From Bryobacteraceae bacterium (lineage in GTDB: Bacteria > Acidobacteriota > Terriglobia > Bryobacterales > Bryobacteraceae): DNA of 33,707 nucleotides. The notes beneath the pieces were generated by a model. It ran no database searches and was not told the origin of the DNA. It saw nothing but the letters and a program-made list of their open reading frames with translations. The stretch covers positions 1 to 33,707 of the forward strand of contig JASHNT010000062.1 of the NCBI GenBank assembly GCA_030041495.1, written 5' to 3'. Numbering within the stretch: the first letter of the stretch is position 1; each line of letters starts with the position of its first letter. Below are positions 10,418-19,566 of the stretch, piece by piece. The translations under genes were made by a program, and so were the position numbers.

Positions 10418-11500
10418 CTACCCAATCTCCAGCACCACCCACCCCGGCAAACTCGTCGGCTGGCCGCCTTCGAAAATCACTCGACGAGTCTTGGGGAAGG
10501 GAAGCCCGGTTTGCAGCGTGCGCTCATACATCGGGTAATGCTTCATCACCGACCGGTAGGCCGTGTCTTCCGTCTCCAGGTACGGAACCTTCGAATGCAA
10601 GCCTCCGCCCCAGCCGATCGAGAGCATGCAATACTGCGGCGACGCGCTGACCTCCTTCAGCCGCTCCTCCAGAGCCTGCACCAGCGCGCTCACGCGACTC
10701 AGGCCCGCCGTCTGCGCATAACGCTTGTGCTTGGCGAGCTGATCGCCTGCGTACTTATTCGCCGCTTGAAACAGCCGCGTGCGATCCTGCGCGGAGCGCT
10801 CCGTCCACACGCCCTCGAACAACGTTCCGGGCGTGGCCATCTCCGCGAAAACCGGCGTGCTCTCTTCGATCCTCCGTGAATCCGCCGACCCGCGCACCGA
10901 TTTCCATCCCAACTCCAGTTTGCCCGCCCCGCGAGCCACCAGGGTCGCCACGCGCAGCAGGTAGACCTTCATCGCCGCATACGAGCCCTCGCGCGAATCG
11001 CCGGCCGAGACGCGCTTGGCTCGCGGAACGTCTTCGATCTTGACCGCCGGGTTGCGCGGCGCACGCTCGCCCTCTATCCTCTGCGCGAAATCCTCGAACG
11101 TCTTCGTGCTCCAGCGCTCATGCACCAGCCCCGTGCGCAGGGCCCCCTTGAGCGAGGTCGCGGGAAGATACGGACCGTTGAGCGAAGCCGCGAACGTCGG
11201 AATAAAAAGATGCTCAGCCTGCGCGCGCTGCCACACCGGAATCGCTGCCGGACTCTCGAACGGAATCCGCCGTCCCGCGAAATTCTGCGCGAATCCGCCC
11301 CAGCTCGCGAAATCCAGCCGATCGGCCTTCTTGAGCTGTGCCAAGTATCCATCCAAGCGCGGACCCTTGGCCAGCAGCTTGAAAATCCGCCGCTGGTCCA
11401 GCACGTTCACATGATCGCGCCACACCATGTAGTCGATCGGCGAAAGTTTCTGGCCGTCGCCCACCAGCGTCGGAGTTAGGCACATGACGCGATAATTCAT
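10418..11500 (-). CDS. csm5: Type III-A CRISPR RAMP protein Csm5
   Basis: 360 residues. Csm5 caps the crRNA 3' end of the Csm complex and belongs to the RAMP (RRM-fold) superfamily. The N-terminus has the family pattern CLTPTLVGDGQKLSPIDYMV, equivalent to the 'TPvhIGsG..l.pidYv' block, followed by RRIFKLL. The central GPYLPATSLKGALRTGL is the Gly-rich RAMP loop. The C-terminal third is basic with SIGWGGGLHSK, matching the conserved G-x-G-G-G region of Csm5. It starts inside the csm4 stop codon (ATGA, 4-bp overlap), implying translational coupling. Its place as last gene of a csm1-csm5 series supports the assignment. No Csm6-type gene follows; the next gene is ppa. Confidence 0.88.
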   Translation of the reverse strand: MNYRVMCLTPTLVGDGQKLSPIDYMVWRDHVNVLDQRRIFKLLAKGPRLDGYLAQLKKADRLDFASWGGFAQNFAGRRIPFESPAAIPVWQRAQAEHLFIPTFAASLNGPYLPATSLKGALRTGLVHERWSTKTFEDFAQRIEGERAPRNPAVKIEDVPRAKRVSAGDSREGSYAAMKVYLLRVATLVARGAGKLELGWKSVRGSADSRRIEESTPVFAEMATPGTLFEGVWTERSAQDRTRLFQAANKYAGDQLAKHKRYAQTAGLSRVSALVQALEERLKEVSASPQYCMLSIGWGGGLHSKVPYLETEDTAYRSVMKHYPMYERTLQTGLPFPKTRRVIFEGGQPTSLPGWVVLEIG

Positions 11501-12573
11501 GCGGCGTCTTCCTCCGCCGGCTCAACCCGCTCCGGTTCCGGCTCGACCGTTTCCTTGGGAGGAAATTGCGGCAGCTCCACCGGCATTTCCCGAGCCACAG
11601 GCCGCACGGGAATCGGAATCGCCAGCGCATAGCCGGCCCGGTACACCGGATGCGCGAATCTCTCTGGCGCAACGTCCACGACCGACCCGCGCGGCTCCGC
11701 GGACACCAGCACCACGGATCCTTCCGTGATCATTCTCGTCGGCCGCTTGAGGCCGCCCCAACCGGCATCGCTTTCGATCCGCCCGCTGCGCGTCACCACG
11801 GAATAATTCCCGCGAGTCCAATCCACGGCATCACCGGCAGCCGGATGATAGAGCGATAGCATCCACCAGGCCGCTTCCGCGGCTTCCCCCTTGCCGCCCA
11901 GAATGTTCCTCTCCTCGCTTACGCTCAACTCTGCGCGTCCCCATCCGCGCGACCGCTCGCCACCGAATCCCGAATCGGCCAGCAACCTCAGAGCCGCGGT
12001 CACGGGTCCTTGCCACTGCTCCTGAGCCTCGTCACCCGCGAACGCCGCAGCCAGCCAGAGGCCGGCGTTAGGCGCAAATTCCAGGCAAGCACTCGAATGC
12101 GGACTCACGCCCGCTCCTCCGCGATCCACTGCCGCGCTGGAGCGCACCGAGACGCGGAACGGGCCTTGCGTGCCCATCGCGATCAACGTTTCGCTGGCCC
12201 CGTCCACCGCCCATCCTTCTTCATTTACACCCTTGCCCTGCAGCATGGATTGAACCGTAGAAAGCGGCACGAACCGCGCGCCCTTCCATCGCACTTTCGA
12301 AGACGCCGGCGGAGGCCACACGCTGCGAGGCGGAATTACATACAAAGTCTCGCCATGAAACGGAAAGCAGGAACTGAACCGCACCGCTGGCTCGGTTGCG
12401 CGAACCGTCGCCTCCAGCCAGTCTTCCAACCTTCCCAGTCGCGCCATCGCACCTGTGACAGCGGAGTACAAAGCGTCGCTGTGATACACCCGCTCCACGC
12501 GATCACGATCACCCGAATCCGGGCCGATGCGCCACGGTCCGTTGGGGCGCAGGCGAATGAGCAATCCCTGCAT
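11497..12573 (-). CDS. csm4: Type III-A CRISPR RAMP protein Csm4
   Basis: 358 residues from the ATG at 12573, beginning MQGLLIRLRPNGPWRIG; a longer frame to 12702 exists but would run back through the csm3 coding region and its extra 43 residues look non-coding. Csm4 binds the 5' tag of crRNA and bridges Cas10 to the Csm3 backbone. Family features are the early RVYHSDALYSAVTGAMARLG segment, SSCFPFHGETLYVIPP, the glycine-rich DSGFGGERSRGWGRAEL loop, and the C-terminal KRPTRMITEGSVV block. It starts 7 bp after the csm3 stop and overlaps csm5 by 4 bp. Nothing appears truncated. Confidence 0.88.
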   Translation of the reverse strand: MQGLLIRLRPNGPWRIGPDSGDRDRVERVYHSDALYSAVTGAMARLGRLEDWLEATVRATEPAVRFSSCFPFHGETLYVIPPRSVWPPPASSKVRWKGARFVPLSTVQSMLQGKGVNEEGWAVDGASETLIAMGTQGPFRVSVRSSAAVDRGGAGVSPHSSACLEFAPNAGLWLAAAFAGDEAQEQWQGPVTAALRLLADSGFGGERSRGWGRAELSVSEERNILGGKGEAAEAAWWMLSLYHPAAGDAVDWTRGNYSVVTRSGRIESDAGWGGLKRPTRMITEGSVVLVSAEPRGSVVDVAPERFAHPVYRAGYALAIPIPVRPVAREMPVELPQFPPKETVEPEPERVEPAEEDAA

Positions 12574-12580
12574 GAATTCG

Positions 12581-13411
12581 TTACGAAAGCTTCTCGGAGA
12601 AGTCCGCCGCGTTCGCCGCGGCCTGAACCTTCGCGAGATCCGCCCCGGAAGCCAGCTCTGCTTCTTCGCCGCCCGAATAAAAGGCGCGATTGCGCCACGC
12701 AATTTTCAGATTCGAGAAGCGCACGCGCCCGCTCCCGCGCGAGCCTCCGCCGCCCAGCGCGTCGTCTTCCAGCAGCCGCAAGCCTTCGATCACCCTCGGC
12801 GCAAGAGCCTTGTCCTCGTCGCACAGAATGTCCAGGACCATCCGGACGCGGAATCGAGCGCCCGCCGGAACCCGCTCCAGAGTCCGCGGATTAGCCTGTG
12901 AAGTGATCCGGTCAATCGCGTTTTCGCTCTTGACCTCCGTGATCTCGTCATCCAGATTCTCGCGCATCTGCGCCGTGATGCTCTCCGGATCGAGCGGTGC
13001 GTCGTACACCGTCAGCCGCGCCGGGCTGGCCGTCTTCGATTCCACCGCCTCGCCTTCCACCCGTTCCATCCGGCCCGGATTGCGCCCGAACAGCAAGCAG
13101 ATTTCGTCGTCTGGACGGTCGCTCTGGTGAATGCGAACCTCCTGGCCCCGCCGCTTCGACAAATACACCAGCTCCGCCGGCGCAGTTAGTCCCAGCGCGT
13201 TTTCGAGCAGCGATCGGATCTTGCCCCGCAGCGAACTCCCCGGAATGTAGGGCAGTCCGAAGGCGTCCTTCACCACCGGATTGTCCGCGCCGCCAATTTC
13301 CAGCGACCCCTTGCCGGCTCCAATGTGCAAACCGGTTTCGCAATGCAGATCGCCCGAAAAAATCAATTTCCCCACCAGCTTCAGTTGTGTCTGAGCGGTA
13401 TGTGTGCTCAT
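12581..13411 (-). CDS. csm3: Type III-A CRISPR backbone ribonuclease Csm3
   Basis: 276 residues from the ATG at 13411 (MSTHTAQTQLKL); an upstream start at 13450 would overlap the csm2 stop and is less likely. Csm3 forms the repeated backbone of the Csm complex and cuts target RNA every 6 nt. The signature ETGLHIGAG...IGGADNPVVKD...LPYIPGSSLRGKIRSLLE is clear. The Asp in GGADNPV (residue ~43) aligns with the known catalytic Asp of Csm3, so target RNA cleavage should be intact. ENAIDRITSQANPRTLERVP and the closing LGGGGSRGSGRVRF loop are also canonical. It lies 10 bp after csm2 and 7 bp before csm4. Confidence 0.95.
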   Translation of the reverse strand: MSTHTAQTQLKLVGKLIFSGDLHCETGLHIGAGKGSLEIGGADNPVVKDAFGLPYIPGSSLRGKIRSLLENALGLTAPAELVYLSKRRGQEVRIHQSDRPDDEICLLFGRNPGRMERVEGEAVESKTASPARLTVYDAPLDPESITAQMRENLDDEITEVKSENAIDRITSQANPRTLERVPAGARFRVRMVLDILCDEDKALAPRVIEGLRLLEDDALGGGGSRGSGRVRFSNLKIAWRNRAFYSGGEEAELASGADLAKVQAAANAADFSEKLS

Positions 13412-13421
13412 AGAATTATGG

Positions 13422-14156
13422 TTACTCGTTGTAAGCAACGATGGCTTCAAACAGATCTTTAAAACGCTCGTACCCGCGCGGATCGTTCTTGCGCGTCACT
13501 TGTAGCAGCAACCTCTCCAAAGCGTCCAGGCTACGCAGCGAATGCCGGGCGATGGTATAGGCCAGCCTCGCGCGCAGCATCACAAACTGATGTTGCCGCT
13601 CGCTTTCCGGAGCCCGCACCGCCCGCCGCACCGCGTTGTACAAGCGCCGAAGCTGGCTCTTGGTGCCGCTGTCCATATCGCGCATGCGAGCGACAACGGC
13701 GTGCGCCTGGTTATCGAGATACAGGCTGTCGGAAATCAGCTTCTCGATCTCGATCTCCGGGCTCTCGAACGGACGCCGCTCGCCTCCACCCGGACGCCCG
13801 CCTTCGCGCCGGTCACCTCTGCGCTCATCGCGACCGCCTTCGCGACTACCCTCCCGGCCGCCTTCCGGGCGCCGTTCTCCGCCGCGACCCTGACCCTCCG
13901 GACGCGGCCCTCTTCCTTGCCCCTGCTGCTGTCCGCCTTCCCGAGGCGGTCGCTCGCCACGCGGCGGCCGTTCGGGTCTGGCTCCCTGTGGCTTGGCTTC
14001 TTGAGGTTTCGACTCGGCCGCCGCGGCTTCCGCTGGCTTAGCTTCAGCCGGCGCCGGAGCTTCGGTGGGCGCAGAAACTTCCACTGCCGCAGTGTCCGCG
14101 GGTGCGGCCGGCTCGCTGGTTGTTGTCTCGGCTTGAACTTCTTCTTCCATTGGCAT
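13422..14156 (-). CDS. csm2: Type III-A CRISPR small subunit Csm2 with a long acidic-then-RG-rich N-terminal extension
   Basis: 244 residues, about twice the usual 110-150 of Csm2. Residues ~132-244 form the expected all-helical core (IEKLISDSLYLDNQAHAVV ... QLRRLYNAVRRAVR ... VMLRARLAYTIARH ... GYERFKDLFEAIVAYNE); the closing FEAIVAYNE is very typical of Csm2, which lines the target RNA groove. Residues 1-57 are low complexity and acidic, rich in Ala, Pro and Glu. Residues 58-129 are rich in Gly, Arg, Glu and Pro with RGG/RGE/RRG repeats, and are predicted disordered. The SD-like AAGGA lies 5 nt before the second ATG (14150), so Met3 may be the true start. Csm2 assignment rests on the core and on position between cas10 and csm3. 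A 76-bp gap with tandem hairpins precedes it. Confidence 0.82.
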   Translation of the reverse strand: MPMEEEVQAETTTSEPAAPADTAAVEVSAPTEAPAPAEAKPAEAAAAESKPQEAKPQGARPERPPRGERPPREGGQQQGQGRGPRPEGQGRGGERRPEGGREGSREGGRDERRGDRREGGRPGGGERRPFESPEIEIEKLISDSLYLDNQAHAVVARMRDMDSGTKSQLRRLYNAVRRAVRAPESERQHQFVMLRARLAYTIARHSLRSLDALERLLLQVTRKNDPRGYERFKDLFEAIVAYNE

Positions 14157-14162
14157 CCTTAG

Positions 14163-14223
14163 TCACCATGGCGCGGACACGCCGCGCCAAATCAGTCCTC
14201 ACCATGGCGCGGACACGCCGCGC
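14163..14223 (-). repeat. Two tandem GC-rich hairpin repeats (36-nt period) between csm1 and csm2
   Basis: A 24-nt perfect direct repeat occurs at 14164-14187 and 14200-14223, separated by 12 nt. Each copy contains an inverted repeat (GGCGCGG / CCGCGCC, extended to 8 bp in the first copy) around the loop ACACG. In the csm transcript this gives two consecutive hairpins just before csm2. With only two copies and a 12-nt interval it is not a CRISPR array; a dispersed REP-like extragenic palindrome is the likeliest origin. Confidence 0.75.
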
Positions 14224-14232
14224 TATATCAGC

Positions 14233-15708
14233 TTACGCTTCGGCCGACAATCTGGCCCATTCTAACGCTACCCGGCCCGCGGGGCGCAACTTCACGGTCA
14301 CCGCGCTGCGGCCGATCAAATCCGCGATCAACGATGTCCGAGCCTTCTGAAACTCCGCCCGTTGCCGCGCCGGATCGTGCGGCCGAGCGGCACTTAATAT
14401 CCTGCGGATGCGCCGGTGATAACGCCACGGCCGCTCGCCTCCCGTCCTTCGAGCCTGCCTCCGCGACACCCGCGATTGCGACTCCCGGTAGATCCCGCAC
14501 AAATCCCGCAAATACTGCGGAGAGCATCCAAAATCCGAAACCATCCTCACCAGATTATCTTTGAGCTGCGACGCCTCGGTGAACTGCTTCCATTCAAGCG
14601 TCCGCCCCAGCAGCCAGATGCAATCCTTATCCGCGGATTTCGCCGCTTCCAGCCTTTGCCCCGCCTCTTCGAACACCGCGCCCAACGACGCATCCACCGC
14701 GGGCGCCAGAGCCAGACTCATGCTGATGGTTTTGCCCTCCGCTCCGGGATGATCCTTGAGATTCTGCTCCGCGAAGCGATGAAACAGCCGCTCCATCTCA
14801 GCCGCCGTGCCGAGTAGCGCATCCCATGCGCCATACACCGCAAAATCGTCCCCGCCGGCGTAAATCACCGTGACCTTGCGCCAGAACTCCGGCATCGAGC
14901 ACAGCACTTCCAGCTCGCCCGCGAAGAACTGCTTGTACAACACGGAAAGCTGGATATGTTCTTCGATGGTCTGCGTGCGCCGCATTCGGATTCCGAAATT
15001 ATCCACGTCTCCGCGCAGCACGCCCCAAGTTTCCAGTCCCGCCGACCGGGCCGCCAATGCGCTCGTCGCCGCCGGCTCCGCTCCGTCATCGCTCAACGCC
15101 GCCGCACGAGCCAGCGGCAAAGCCTCCGCCGACCCCGCCAGGCTCCAGAAATGTTTCCCTTGGCTGATCGAAACGCGCCCCGGATGCTCCGCCAACCACG
15201 CCACTGCTCCCGCTTCCCGCAGCCGCGCCGCGAGTTCGATGAAGTACGCATCGGCATCGGCCACTGGAGCCGCAGGCGCATCGAAAGCCGTCAAACCGGC
15301 CTGGTCCGCCGGAGCCCCGCGCCGCCGGTCCATCTCCTGCTGCAGCCTGCGCCGCACGTCGCTCCAATCGCCAAGGTTCTCGGTGATGCTCCACACCAGT
15401 TTCAGCACGCCCGCGCTCATCGAGCCGATCTCCGCCGCCGCGGCTTCCAGAAATGCCTGCGCCGAGGGACGAAATTCGTCCGGCAGAACCAGCAGGAACT
15501 GCCCTCCGCCACTCGATCCCAGCAGAATCTTGGCGAGCCCCAACTCGGCCAGCAGCGCCCTCGGCAGCACCTCGCTCAGCAGGCTGATCCAGTGTGAGCG
15601 TCCCAAAAACACCTGGTCTGGATTCGCTGCGCCGCCTTCACCGGCCGGTGAGAGCAGAAACTCGTCGATGCCGAGCAGTTTGCCTTCGAGAAAAATTTGA
15701 ACTGACAT
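14233..15708 (-). CDS. cas10: Cas10/Csm1, short form lacking the HD nuclease domain, cyclase motif intact
   Basis: 491 residues against about 750-850 for full-length Csm1. The large type III subunit makes cyclic oligoadenylates from ATP when target RNA is bound. The N-terminus enters directly into the first palm domain (LGSSGGGQFLLVLPDE, ~64-78, matching the 'ASGG.fy.LLP' motif of Csm1), so the N-terminal HD ssDNase is absent. The second palm has GVLRGDVDNFG (~229-239) and the catalytic YAGGDDFAVYG (GGDD ~285-288), both intact. The conserved EAAKSADKD segment follows. The middle region shows no CxxC pairs, so the usual zinc finger also seems missing. The C-terminal helical domain is basic. 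It is the first gene of the csm series and is divergent from the nitroreductase across 43 bp. Confidence 0.9.
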   Translation of the reverse strand: MSVQIFLEGKLLGIDEFLLSPAGEGGAANPDQVFLGRSHWISLLSEVLPRALLAELGLAKILLGSSGGGQFLLVLPDEFRPSAQAFLEAAAAEIGSMSAGVLKLVWSITENLGDWSDVRRRLQQEMDRRRGAPADQAGLTAFDAPAAPVADADAYFIELAARLREAGAVAWLAEHPGRVSISQGKHFWSLAGSAEALPLARAAALSDDGAEPAATSALAARSAGLETWGVLRGDVDNFGIRMRRTQTIEEHIQLSVLYKQFFAGELEVLCSMPEFWRKVTVIYAGGDDFAVYGAWDALLGTAAEMERLFHRFAEQNLKDHPGAEGKTISMSLALAPAVDASLGAVFEEAGQRLEAAKSADKDCIWLLGRTLEWKQFTEASQLKDNLVRMVSDFGCSPQYLRDLCGIYRESQSRVSRRQARRTGGERPWRYHRRIRRILSAARPHDPARQRAEFQKARTSLIADLIGRSAVTVKLRPAGRVALEWARLSAEA

Positions 15709-18098: not shown

Positions 18099-18737
18099 TT
18101 AGCGGGCGAACAGGCGGCTCAAGACCGGGTAGCTCTGCTGTGCGAGCGTTAACGCGGCTGCAGTAGTCGCCTGATCGCTGCGGCCGGAGTTCCACACTAC
18201 CACTCGAACCAGCGAGGTATCGGTGCGCTGCTCCTTCAACCGGTCGACGATGACCCACCATTTGGCCGCCCACTCGCTGGCGATCACGCGGGCGCGCGTC
18301 TGATACCAGTACAGAACGACGACTTTGTCCTGGCCGAGATTCGCGATGTAACGGTTCACGGCGACGGGTCCGCCGGCCGCGTTCATCTCGATGCGGTCCG
18401 AGACGGTCGGCACCCAGCCGGCTGCGGGCAGGCAAACCTGAGGAGAATGCGGTTGGCTCGCGCCGCCGCGCTGGGATTGGAACCACGCTACGAACAGACT
18501 TCCCAGCCAACCATCTTTCGAGGCATAGATCGAGCCGAGGGTGCTGTCCGCGCCGAGTTGCTGCAGCGTCTCGGGCGGCACGGGATCGTCGCCGGTCTTG
18601 GTCCAGTTGCCCAACGTGGTTGGAAAGCTGGAAAAGCGCGGAGGCGCGGGAGGCTTCTCGGCGCGGGCGACCCAGACGGTCACACCGGTCTGCGCGGCCA
18701 GCACCAGCGGAGCGAGGATGGCGACGCGGCTAAGCAT
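18099..18737 (-). CDS. epsI: EpsI / exosortase-associated domain protein
   Basis: 212 residues from the ATG at 18737, which overlaps the exosortase stop in the sequence ATGCTTAG (8 nt), implying coupled translation. The N-terminus is one membrane-spanning or signal segment (VAILAPLVLAAQTGVTVWVA) followed by a periplasmic domain with FSSFPTTLGNWTKTGDD, the segment HSPQVCLPAAGWVP, RYIANLGQDKVVVLYWYQTR and RLKEQRTDTSLVRV. This pattern matches the EpsI family, often found next to or fused to exosortases in exopolysaccharide loci; its biochemical role is not established. The Cys in SPQVCLPAAGW is family-typical. It pairs with the exosortase and converges on the Sel1 gene. Confidence 0.85.
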   Translation of the reverse strand: MLSRVAILAPLVLAAQTGVTVWVARAEKPPAPPRFSSFPTTLGNWTKTGDDPVPPETLQQLGADSTLGSIYASKDGWLGSLFVAWFQSQRGGASQPHSPQVCLPAAGWVPTVSDRIEMNAAGGPVAVNRYIANLGQDKVVVLYWYQTRARVIASEWAAKWWVIVDRLKEQRTDTSLVRVVVWNSGRSDQATTAAALTLAQQSYPVLSRLFAR

Positions 18738-19566
18738 GCGGCCTCGCTTGTAGCGCCCCGTGGAGCGCGTTGAATGCGCCGCGCAAGGGAAGCAGTAGCG
18801 CGAGAGACAGAGCGAAGATCGCGACTCCCAACAACTCGTGCGGCGCTCCGGAATCGAACGCCGGGACCCAGGCCGACGCAGCGACGCGAAAGGCATTGGC
18901 GAGGATCGCGAGTGGGATGGTCGCGGCGAGCACGGCCGCGCGCATCCACGGCTTGGGATCGGCGAGGTACGCGAACAGGACGGCGACGAAGCCCAGCGGC
19001 AGCAGGTAGCGAATGCCGTTGCATGCCTCGGCGACTGCCACGCGGTGACCGTGCACGTCGAGGATGTTGCCCTCGCGAACCACTCCGATGCCGGCCGTGG
19101 TCAGGATGCCGGTGGCCAGCTTGCTCGCAGCCAGTTGGAGAGGCAGAGTGACCTGGTTGTAGACGATAGCGAGCTTGGGGAGCATGAACAGCGCGAGTAG
19201 GAGGGGAAAGCTCCAGGAACGCAGGAGACGCCAGCCGCCGAAACACACGACGAGTCCGGCGACGCTGACAAGAAACGCGACGGAGCTTGCGAATAATCCG
19301 ACGCCGAGGGTTCCTGCGACATGCATCGCCGCGCCGGCGGCCAGGAGCACGAGTCCCCATGCGCTGGGCTGGAGCGCGTGGCTACGCCAACGCTTGCGCT
19401 CGCGCCAGACGATCCAGAGGACGACGAACGGCACCGCCAAGCCGTGGCCCATGTCCTCATCGCTGATCCACTGCTGGAACATGCCATGCAGAGTGGACGC
19501 GTAGCAGCCCAGCAGAAGCACCATCGTGACGCCTGTCAGCGCCGTGCGCTTGTTGGGGATGGTCAT
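18730..19566 (-). CDS. Exosortase (multi-pass transpeptidase-like membrane protease)
   Basis: 278 residues, almost entirely transmembrane helices. Exosortases are believed to cleave and transfer proteins carrying a C-terminal PEP-CTERM-type signal at the outer face of the inner membrane. The catalytic triad is visible: Cys182 in EACNGIRYLLPL, Arg227 in ILANAFRVAASAW and His243 in APHELLGVAIF. The early HGLAVPFVVLWIVW and MLPKLAIVYN segments are also typical. Downstream epsI overlaps its stop codon. The exact xrt subtype cannot be assigned by eye. No PEP-CTERM substrate is encoded in this window, although the nearby nucleotidyltransferase at 29 kb would fit polysaccharide production. Confidence 0.9.
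   Translation of the reverse strand: MTIPNKRTALTGVTMVLLLGCYASTLHGMFQQWISDEDMGHGLAVPFVVLWIVWRERKRWRSHALQPSAWGLVLLAAGAAMHVAGTLGVGLFASSVAFLVSVAGLVVCFGGWRLLRSWSFPLLLALFMLPKLAIVYNQVTLPLQLAASKLATGILTTAGIGVVREGNILDVHGHRVAVAEACNGIRYLLPLGFVAVLFAYLADPKPWMRAAVLAATIPLAILANAFRVAASAWVPAFDSGAPHELLGVAIFALSLALLLPLRGAFNALHGALQARPHA

What the first reader, a model, noticed from the sequence alone, without database searches (positions are those of the whole stretch)
13422..14156. Csm2 small subunit carries a ~130-residue acidic plus Arg/Gly-rich disordered tail
The core (~132-244) looks like a normal Csm2, but it is preceded by an Ala/Pro/Glu block (1-57) and an RG/RGE-rich block (58-129). RG-rich segments bind RNA and promote condensates in other proteins. 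Several Csm2 copies line the Csm complex, so each complex would display several such tails. I know of no described type III small subunit with this layout. The tail could raise target-RNA capture, tether the complex to RNA or nucleoid, or cluster the cOA-producing complexes.
Basis: partly seen in the sequence, partly recalled or inferred. Interest (0 to 1): 0.8.

Follow-up and report, generated by a model that had tools for sequence, protein, structure and literature searches.

The report
Family-wide Csm complex with RG tails
The RNA-binding-looking tail on this CRISPR protein is real, and it belongs to a CRISPR-derived complex that nearly all examined members of a soil bacterial family inherit like a housekeeping gene, with no CRISPR memory seen beside it, which suggests that an immune machine may have taken on another job.

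Summary
ORF 13422-14156(-) has a Csm2 core (residues 134-244) behind a disordered tail: an acidic Ala/Pro/Glu part, then an Arg/Gly/Pro/Glu part. Translation probably starts at Met3.

The survey shows something larger. The core matches in 183 of 200 genomes of the window's family (Bryobacteraceae by record titles), 134 of 140 high-quality, and evolves about as slowly as RpoB. The tail is in 93 of 93 loci with a readable start (35-165 aa). The operon cas10-csm2-csm3-csm4-csm5 is complete and in one order in 80 of 94 loci; the other 14 end at a contig end. No partner gene is widely conserved beside it and no CRISPR array was recognised there. Cas10 lacks its HD nuclease but keeps both palms; GGDD is altered in 17 of 92 loci. 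The Csm3 catalytic Asp motif is intact in 94 of 94. Distances follow rpoB. A Cas6 relative elsewhere in the genome occurs in 115 of 140 high-quality genomes. In the window's own genome no Cas1 and no (T)GAAAC array was found.

Best reading: a type III-A effector fixed as a vertically inherited near-core ribonucleoprotein, each Csm2 adding an RNA-binding tail. Fixation and tail are shown; RNA capture, condensates and guide source are inferred. My searches found no description in print.

The parts
13422..14150 (-). csm2, likely true start at Met3 (the ORF as listed begins at 14156)
13758..14150 (-). disordered tail (residues 3-133): acidic Ala/Pro/Glu part to about residue 57, then Arg/Gly/Pro/Glu part
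   Evidence: (pLDDT below 50 for 1-130)
13422..13757 (-). Csm2 core (residues 134-244), six helices; conserved about as strongly as RpoB
14233..15708 (-). cas10 without HD domain (491 aa; palm1, palm2 with GGDD, C-terminal helical domain)
12581..13411 (-). csm3, motif GGADNPVVKD with the catalytic Asp (assignment recalled); start inferred from the conserved alignment start
11497..12573 (-). csm4, with an acidic Pro/Glu-rich C-terminus; start inferred from where relatives' matches begin
10418..11500 (-). csm5

Best explanation
A type III-A Csm effector was fixed at or near the base of this family and is now inherited vertically as a near-core ribonucleoprotein. It lacks the HD DNase of Cas10 and has no CRISPR array or adaptation genes at its locus, and it kept the five subunits and the Csm3 RNase aspartate. 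It most likely binds and cuts, or sequesters, cellular or invading RNA. Several Csm2 subunits line a Csm complex (recalled), and here each would carry an acidic plus Arg/Gly-rich disordered tail; by avidity the tails would raise RNA affinity, hold RNA near the backbone, or let complexes co-assemble on RNA. In most genomes a Cas6 encoded elsewhere could make the guide. Shown: composition, fixation, vertical descent, HD absence, tail universality. Supported by few data: selection on the tail. Inferred: complex assembly, RNA binding by the tail, guide source, loss or reduction of the immune role.
For: Csm2 core in 183 of 200 family genomes, 134 of 140 high-quality, 69 of 76 genera, one match in 181 of the 183 (G090 and G148 have two); identity to the window 80-98% in the matches listed, the lists being cut off. 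Order: all listed hits are in this family; none in the 8 listed genomes of two other families; 12 more genomes without a match are not listed. Phylum: 24 of 347 genomes match Csm3, 3 of them in the window's genus; the other 21 show 34-48% identity over long matches, up to 58% over short ones. Operon complete and in one order in 80 of 94 loci; in the other 14 a contig ends inside the operon or within 0.9 kb of the last gene found. Median pairwise identity over 30 genomes: RpoB 0.85, Csm2 core 0.87; Mantel with rpoB 0.39-0.52 for csm2, csm3, cas10, csm5 (p 0.004 or less), csm4 0.23 (p 0.05). Eight csm-lacking genomes nest among csm-bearing ones on the rpoB tree. dN/dS for G119/G178: core 0.015, csm3 0.031, cas10 0.054, tail 0.064, csm5 0.071, csm4 0.082. 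Csm3 Asp motif 94 of 94. Longest cas10 open frame in 92 loci 612 aa, against 727-937 aa in 11 of 12 outgroup acidobacterial III-A loci (L275 is cut); outgroup Csm2 was found in 4 of 12 and has 136-152 aa. No CRISPR array recognised in 181 loci, 2.18 Mb: 4 loci gave repeat runs, of which L040, L065 and L138 read as head-to-tail repeats without differing spacers and L089 shows the same repeat as L040. G000: no Cas1, no (T)GAAAC triple, no array in 0.67 of 6.1 Mb. Tail in 93 of 93 loci, mean R 19%, G 21%, P 14%.
Against: GGDD is intact in 75 of 92 loci, and the second palm2 Asp of RGDxD in 91 of 92, so cOA signalling, hence defence, may persist in most species. A Cas6 relative is kept in 115 of 140 high-quality genomes, which argues for crRNA-like guides. 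Cas1 occurs in 68 of 121 family genomes and large arrays in some, so guides could come in trans. About 89% of the window's genome was not scanned directly for arrays, and arrays often break assemblies. Nothing here measures RNA binding, assembly or phenotype. The tail changes fast in length and sequence. Selection on the tail rests on one pair with moderate dS (that of the tail itself is 1.29) and two saturated pairs.
Confidence: 0.55

Rival explanations
1. It is still an ordinary type III-A immune effector that takes crRNAs in trans from other CRISPR arrays, as suggested for subtype III-G; the tail only aids target capture.
For: Cas6 relative in 163 of 200 genomes; Cas1 in 68 of 121; many pattern matches, i.e. 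large arrays, in G104, G028 and G027; GGDD in 75 of 92; [quoted passage not shown] III-G is thought to recruit crRNAs in trans (PMC12669027, passages).
Against: Kept in genomes with no Cas1 match and no (T)GAAAC triple, among them G000, G024 and G002; in G070 and G110 no Cas6 of PF10040 was found; conservation at RpoB level and vertical descent are unlike the patchy spread of CRISPR immunity.
Confidence: 0.3
2. An HD-less cOA signalling module: the complex senses RNA and makes cyclic oligoadenylate for an effector encoded elsewhere; tails cluster the cyclases.
For: Both palm domains are modelled, GGDD in 75 of 92, the second Asp of the palm2 RGDxD motif in 91 of 92 and the first in 84 of 92.
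Against: The tetrad is altered in 17 of 92 loci in eleven different forms while the rest of the operon stays; no gene is widely conserved near it. CARF effectors genome-wide were not searched.
Confidence: 0.2
3. The tail is neutral low-complexity filler from GC-rich repeat expansion.
For: Length 35-165 aa, low identity (mean 0.48), GDRGD-type repeats.
Against: In 93 of 93 loci with similar composition and at most 8.2% FILVWYC; dN/dS 0.064 in the G119/G178 pair, 0.108 and 0.170 in two saturated pairs.
Confidence: 0.1
4. The tail is not translated; Csm2 starts just before the core.
For: 30 of 93 loci have some ATG/GTG/TTG between 25 codons before the core and codon 8 of it.
Against: 63 of 93 have none; 61 of 92 have the upstream ATG within -8 to +25 nt of the cas10 stop; low dN/dS of the tail.
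Confidence: 0.02

Closest known systems
Type III-A CRISPR-Cas (Csm complex; e.g. L. lactis, E. italicus, S. epidermidis, M. canettii structures in the PDB)
   Same: Four subunits by curated HMM and all five by PADLOC models; the Cas10 model's best PDB hits are Csm1 chains, TM 0.74 by query length; Csm3 Asp motif.
   Different: No HD domain; no array or cas1/cas2 recognised at the locus; Cas6 elsewhere; near-fixed and vertical in one family; long RG-rich Csm2 tail.
Subtypes III-G, III-H, III-I (reductive type III variants)
   Same: Reduced type III effectors; III-G and III-H lack adaptation genes and no array was found in III-G loci (PMC12669027, passages).
   Different: That paper says III-G/H have apparently active HD and no conserved Cas7 aspartates; III-I has Cas7-11i and a diverged Cas10 without the N-terminal polymerase domain. 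Here HD is absent, the Csm3 Asp is kept and the csm2-5 set is intact.
Type III-A of Mycobacterium tuberculosis with proposed roles beyond immunity
   Same: Conserved III-A with little sign of spacer acquisition and suggested other roles (PMC13334790; search listing and start of abstract only).
   Different: As far as the start of that abstract goes it is one species' CRISPR-Cas system; here a family-wide trait with HD absence and a tail. The paper's body was not read.
RG/RGG-rich RNA-binding disordered regions (eukaryotic RNA-binding proteins)
   Same: Arg/Gly-rich, disordered, few hydrophobics; RG motifs are described as RNA-binding and condensate-forming (PMC12502372, start of abstract in the listing).
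   Different: Mixed with Glu/Asp and Pro, near-neutral net charge (median +0.04 per residue), hardly any aromatics; sits on a multi-copy CRISPR subunit.

Membership tests
Type III-A CRISPR-Cas effector (Csm) | Csm2, Csm3, Csm4, Csm5 by curated models | tested here: met
   TIGR01870, TIGR02582, TIGR01903, TIGR01899 all above cut-off
Type III-A CRISPR-Cas effector (Csm) | Cas10/Csm1 | tested here: inconclusive
   TIGR02578 165.1 bits against a cut-off of 170, best stretch at positions 491-748 of 753; the model's fold matches Csm1
Type III-A CRISPR-Cas effector (Csm) | HD nuclease domain in Cas10 | tested here: not met
   Aligns to Csm1 only from about residue 252-273 on; model begins with palm1; longest open frame among 92 loci 612 aa. 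A separate HD gene elsewhere was not sought.
Type III-A CRISPR-Cas effector (Csm) | palm2 GGDD | tested here: met
   present in the window; 75 of 92 loci
Type III-A CRISPR-Cas effector (Csm) | Csm3 catalytic Asp | tested here: met
   GG[AS]DNPV[VI]KD in 94 of 94 loci; residue assignment recalled
Type III-A CRISPR-Cas immune system | associated CRISPR array | tested here: not met
   none recognised in the window or 181 loci, none in 0.67 Mb of G000, no (T)GAAAC triple in whole G000; other repeat classes in the remaining 89% untested
Type III-A CRISPR-Cas immune system | Cas6 in the genome | tested here: met
   on another contig, G000:C26
Type III-A CRISPR-Cas immune system | Cas1 in the genome | tested here: not met
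   G000 has no match to PF01867; assembly 98% complete
Type III-A CRISPR-Cas immune system | cOA-responsive effector (Csm6 or other CARF) | not tested
   no genome-wide search; only that no gene family is widely shared beside the operon
Subtype III-G | active HD, Cas7 without catalytic Asp, inactive palm | tested here: not met
   HD absent, Csm3 Asp motif present, GGDD present (definition from PMC12669027 passages)
RG-rich RNA-binding disordered region | disordered and Arg/Gly-rich | tested here: met
RG-rich RNA-binding disordered region | binds RNA | not testable with these tools
   needs an assay

The most novel reading that the evidence does not exclude
A type III CRISPR effector has become a housekeeping ribonucleoprotein of a whole bacterial family, with no CRISPR memory, an RNA-cutting backbone loaded with non-CRISPR RNA, and multivalent RG tails that organise it with RNA: a bacterial RNP machine descended from immunity.
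Probability: 0.4. Interest if true: 0.95.

Novelty: new variant of a known kind. Interest (0 to 1): 0.82.

Why it matters
CRISPR effectors are usually patchy and fast-evolving. A Csm2 core in 134 of 140 good genomes of one family, inside the same five-gene operon in 80 of 94 loci examined (the rest cut by contig ends) and evolving as slowly as RpoB, would be a clear case of a multi-subunit CRISPR complex kept for something other than, or beyond, array-based memory. It makes testable whether guide-loaded complexes serve as ordinary RNA regulators, and offers HD-less Csm complexes with natural RNA-binding tails.

Tried and rejected
Palm1 loss: my early note took the short Cas10 to lack palm1. 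Searches show palm1 is kept and only HD is gone; corrected.

The 33-nt direct repeat 14163-14231 between cas10 and csm2 as a guide RNA: rejected, because relatives have a different spacer or only a few nt there, and Rfam finds nothing in the window.

A sixth operon gene: the most frequent neighbour, an ExeA-like ATPase (name recalled from its sequence), is in 29 of 94 loci and the next two families in 14 each (ORFs heuristic).

Repeat runs: one search flagged L040, L065, L089, L138. L040, L065 and L138 read as head-to-tail repeats without differing spacers; L089 shows the same repeat as L040 and was not read apart. The (T)GAAAC pattern matched 10 of 20 genomes: large numbers in G104 (91), G028 (79), G027 (159); 1-5 in G089, G119, G008, G144, G026, G094, G041; the reversed control gave one match in each of 7 genomes, so single matches are at chance level. 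G041, which is not among the Cas1-bearing genomes, has a ~79-nt head-to-tail repeat behind two of its four matches (L267).

Strict csm-Cas6 co-loss: not upheld. Over 200 genomes: csm+cas6+ 155, csm+cas6- 28, csm-cas6+ 8, csm-cas6- 9 (Fisher p 0.0008, confounded by incomplete assemblies). The sampled genomes of genera g44 (5) and g70 (3) keep csm without this Cas6 at E 1e-15; G044 and G099 have another PF10040 match. Some of the 163 matches are distant and may be other Cas6 (e.g. G007, 34%).

Absences: G129 and G084 have Csm3 fragments at contig starts, and 7 of the 15 csm-lacking family genomes searched for rpoB had no rpoB match either, so true losses are few. Deep branch supports of the rpoB tree are low.

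One search stopped with an error after the Csm3 motif count and the first identities; the identity part was redone, where csm3 and csm4 include badly framed rows, so their minima mean nothing. In one search the Csm3 column had 15 gap rows from the same framing problem; one search counts directly. csm4 dN/dS failed for two of three pairs.

The csm2 core has no match in phage records at E 1e-5. Csm3 matches in plasmid records are below 60% identity in all 23 records.

Full report
What was claimed and what is there. The ORF at 13422-14156(-) is 244 aa. Its last ~110 residues are Csm2 by Pfam, NCBIfam and PADLOC. Every 10-residue block of 1-130 has mean pLDDT below 50, and six helices lie at 137-243. 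The tail's densest 60-residue stretch is 62% Arg+Gly, the highest among 552 heuristic ORFs sampled from this genome, of which 6 reach 40% with few hydrophobics. Translation probably begins at Met3: AAGG lies 6 nt upstream of it, and close relatives start MDEEVQ or MADEEVQ.

The operon. On the minus strand lie cas10, csm2, csm3, csm4, csm5. The flanking genes are a pyrophosphatase downstream and a divergent nitroreductase whose start lies 43 nt from that of cas10. I recognised no CRISPR array in the window and no cas1, cas2 or cas6 among the window ORFs that I identified (the rest of the window was not annotated gene by gene); genome-wide, no Cas1 was found and Cas6 is on another contig.

How widespread it is. 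The tool names no family; record titles of 80 loci kept out of 173 relatives (Bryobacterales, Bryobacteraceae, Solibacter and broader labels) point to the Bryobacteraceae. In 200 genomes of the family the Csm2 core matches in 183; in 134 of 140 genomes that are at least 90% complete with at most 5% contamination; in 69 of 76 genera. All listed hits in the order belong to this family; the 8 listed genomes of two other families have none, and 12 further genomes without a match are not named in the output. Across the phylum, Csm3 at E 1e-6 occurs in 24 of 347 genomes, three of them in the window's genus and 21 distant. Of the six high-quality genomes without Csm2, G129 holds a Csm3 fragment at a contig start. 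On an rpoB tree eight csm-free genomes lie among csm-bearing ones, which fits an ancestral operon with later losses, though deep supports are weak and some absences may be assembly gaps.

Vertical and slow. From 121 candidate loci 94 non-redundant ones remained; 80 have all five genes in the same order and strand; the other 14 end at a contig end inside the operon or within 0.9 kb of the last gene found. Neighbouring genes mostly differ between loci. Over 30 genomes the median pairwise identity is 0.85 for RpoB, 0.87 for the Csm2 core, 0.74 for Csm3, and about 0.5 for Cas10, Csm4 and Csm5. Identities correlate with those of rpoB (Spearman 0.39-0.52, permutation p 0.001-0.004; csm4 0.23, p 0.05). 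dN/dS in the pair with the lowest dS (G119/G178) is 0.015 for the core and 0.03-0.08 for the other genes.

The tail. It is present in 93 of 93 loci with a readable start; length 35-165, median 67 residues; on average 19% Arg, 21% Gly, 14% Pro, 12% Glu; RG occurs in 88 of 93, RGG in 55; the first 12 residues are slightly acidic, the last 35 are 57% R+G (medians). Net charge is close to neutral (median +0.04 per residue), which tempers a simple polycation model. Its dN/dS is 0.064 in G119/G178 (tail dS 1.29) and 0.108 and 0.170 in two pairs with saturated dS. In 63 of 93 loci no start codon lies near the core, so the tail must be translated if Csm2 is. In 12 acidobacterial III-A loci from outside the family, Csm2 was recognised in 4, with 136-152 residues; one of these has a short Gly-rich start.

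What Cas10 lacks. The protein aligns with solved Csm1 chains from about their residue 252-273 on. The model (mean pLDDT 88.7) has two palm-like folds and a helical C-terminus (domain reading mine), and its best structural hits are Csm1 in Csm complexes. The longest cas10 open frame in 92 family loci is 612 aa, while outgroup Cas10 frames run to 727-937 aa in 11 of 12 loci, so the HD nuclease is missing in the loci seen. GGDD is intact in 75 of 92 loci and altered in 17, in eleven forms. The Csm3 motif with the catalytic Asp (assignment recalled) is intact in 94 of 94.

Guides. PF10040 Cas6 matches in 104 of 121 family genomes. Of the 20 loci fetched, 19 carry one related Cas6 family, away from csm and without arrays found beside it. 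With the window genome's Cas6 as query, 163 of 200 genomes and 115 of 140 high-quality ones match at E 1e-15. Csm without it occurs in 28 genomes; G070 and G110 have no PF10040 match at all. Cas1 is patchy, 68 of 121, and not found in G000. A triple (T)GAAAC pattern finds nothing in G000; 10 of 20 genomes match, three of them in large numbers and all three with Cas1. A III-type repeat occurs in 5 of 31 genomes. A direct scan found no array in 0.67 Mb of G000, while the detector recovered the arrays in five control loci. The remaining 89% of G000 was not scanned directly.

Mechanism. Best supported: a retained Csm ribonucleoprotein without its own DNA-cutting domain that relies on Csm3 for RNA cutting, with multivalent Csm2 tails that add RNA affinity. 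Whether its guide is a Cas6 product, a trans crRNA or a host RNA is open. Immunity with trans crRNAs remains a serious rival.

Literature. Ten searches of open-licence PMC papers showed no description of this complex or of an RG-tailed Csm2 in their listings. PMC12669027, PMC5294841, PMC6119699 and PMC11742911 were read only as found passages. The main text of PMC12669027 contains neither Acidobacter* nor Bryobacter*; its supplements were not seen.

Noticed in passing
window 14163-14231: Two 33-nt direct repeats (94% alike, 36-nt spacing) with a GC-rich palindrome between cas10 and csm2; not seen in the relatives printed, so probably a recent insertion.
   Followed up: partly
window 11497-11650: Csm4 ends in an acidic Pro/Glu-rich stretch, possibly a counterpart to the basic part of the Csm2 tail.
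   Followed up: no
window 18099-19566: Exosortase (Exosortase_EpsH) next to a DUF3485 gene, a likely exopolysaccharide or protein-sorting pair.
   Followed up: no
29 of 94 csm loci, e.g. L069 just downstream of csm5: ExeA-like AAA ATPase (name recalled), median 152 nt downstream of csm5, probably ancestral neighbourhood.
   Followed up: partly
L137: A metagenome bin with this operon is titled Bordetella parapertussis in its public record, apparently mislabelled.
   Followed up: no
G027:C19, G074:C9, G104:C4: Large ordinary CRISPR arrays coexist with the csm operon in some family members; spacers were not examined.
   Followed up: no
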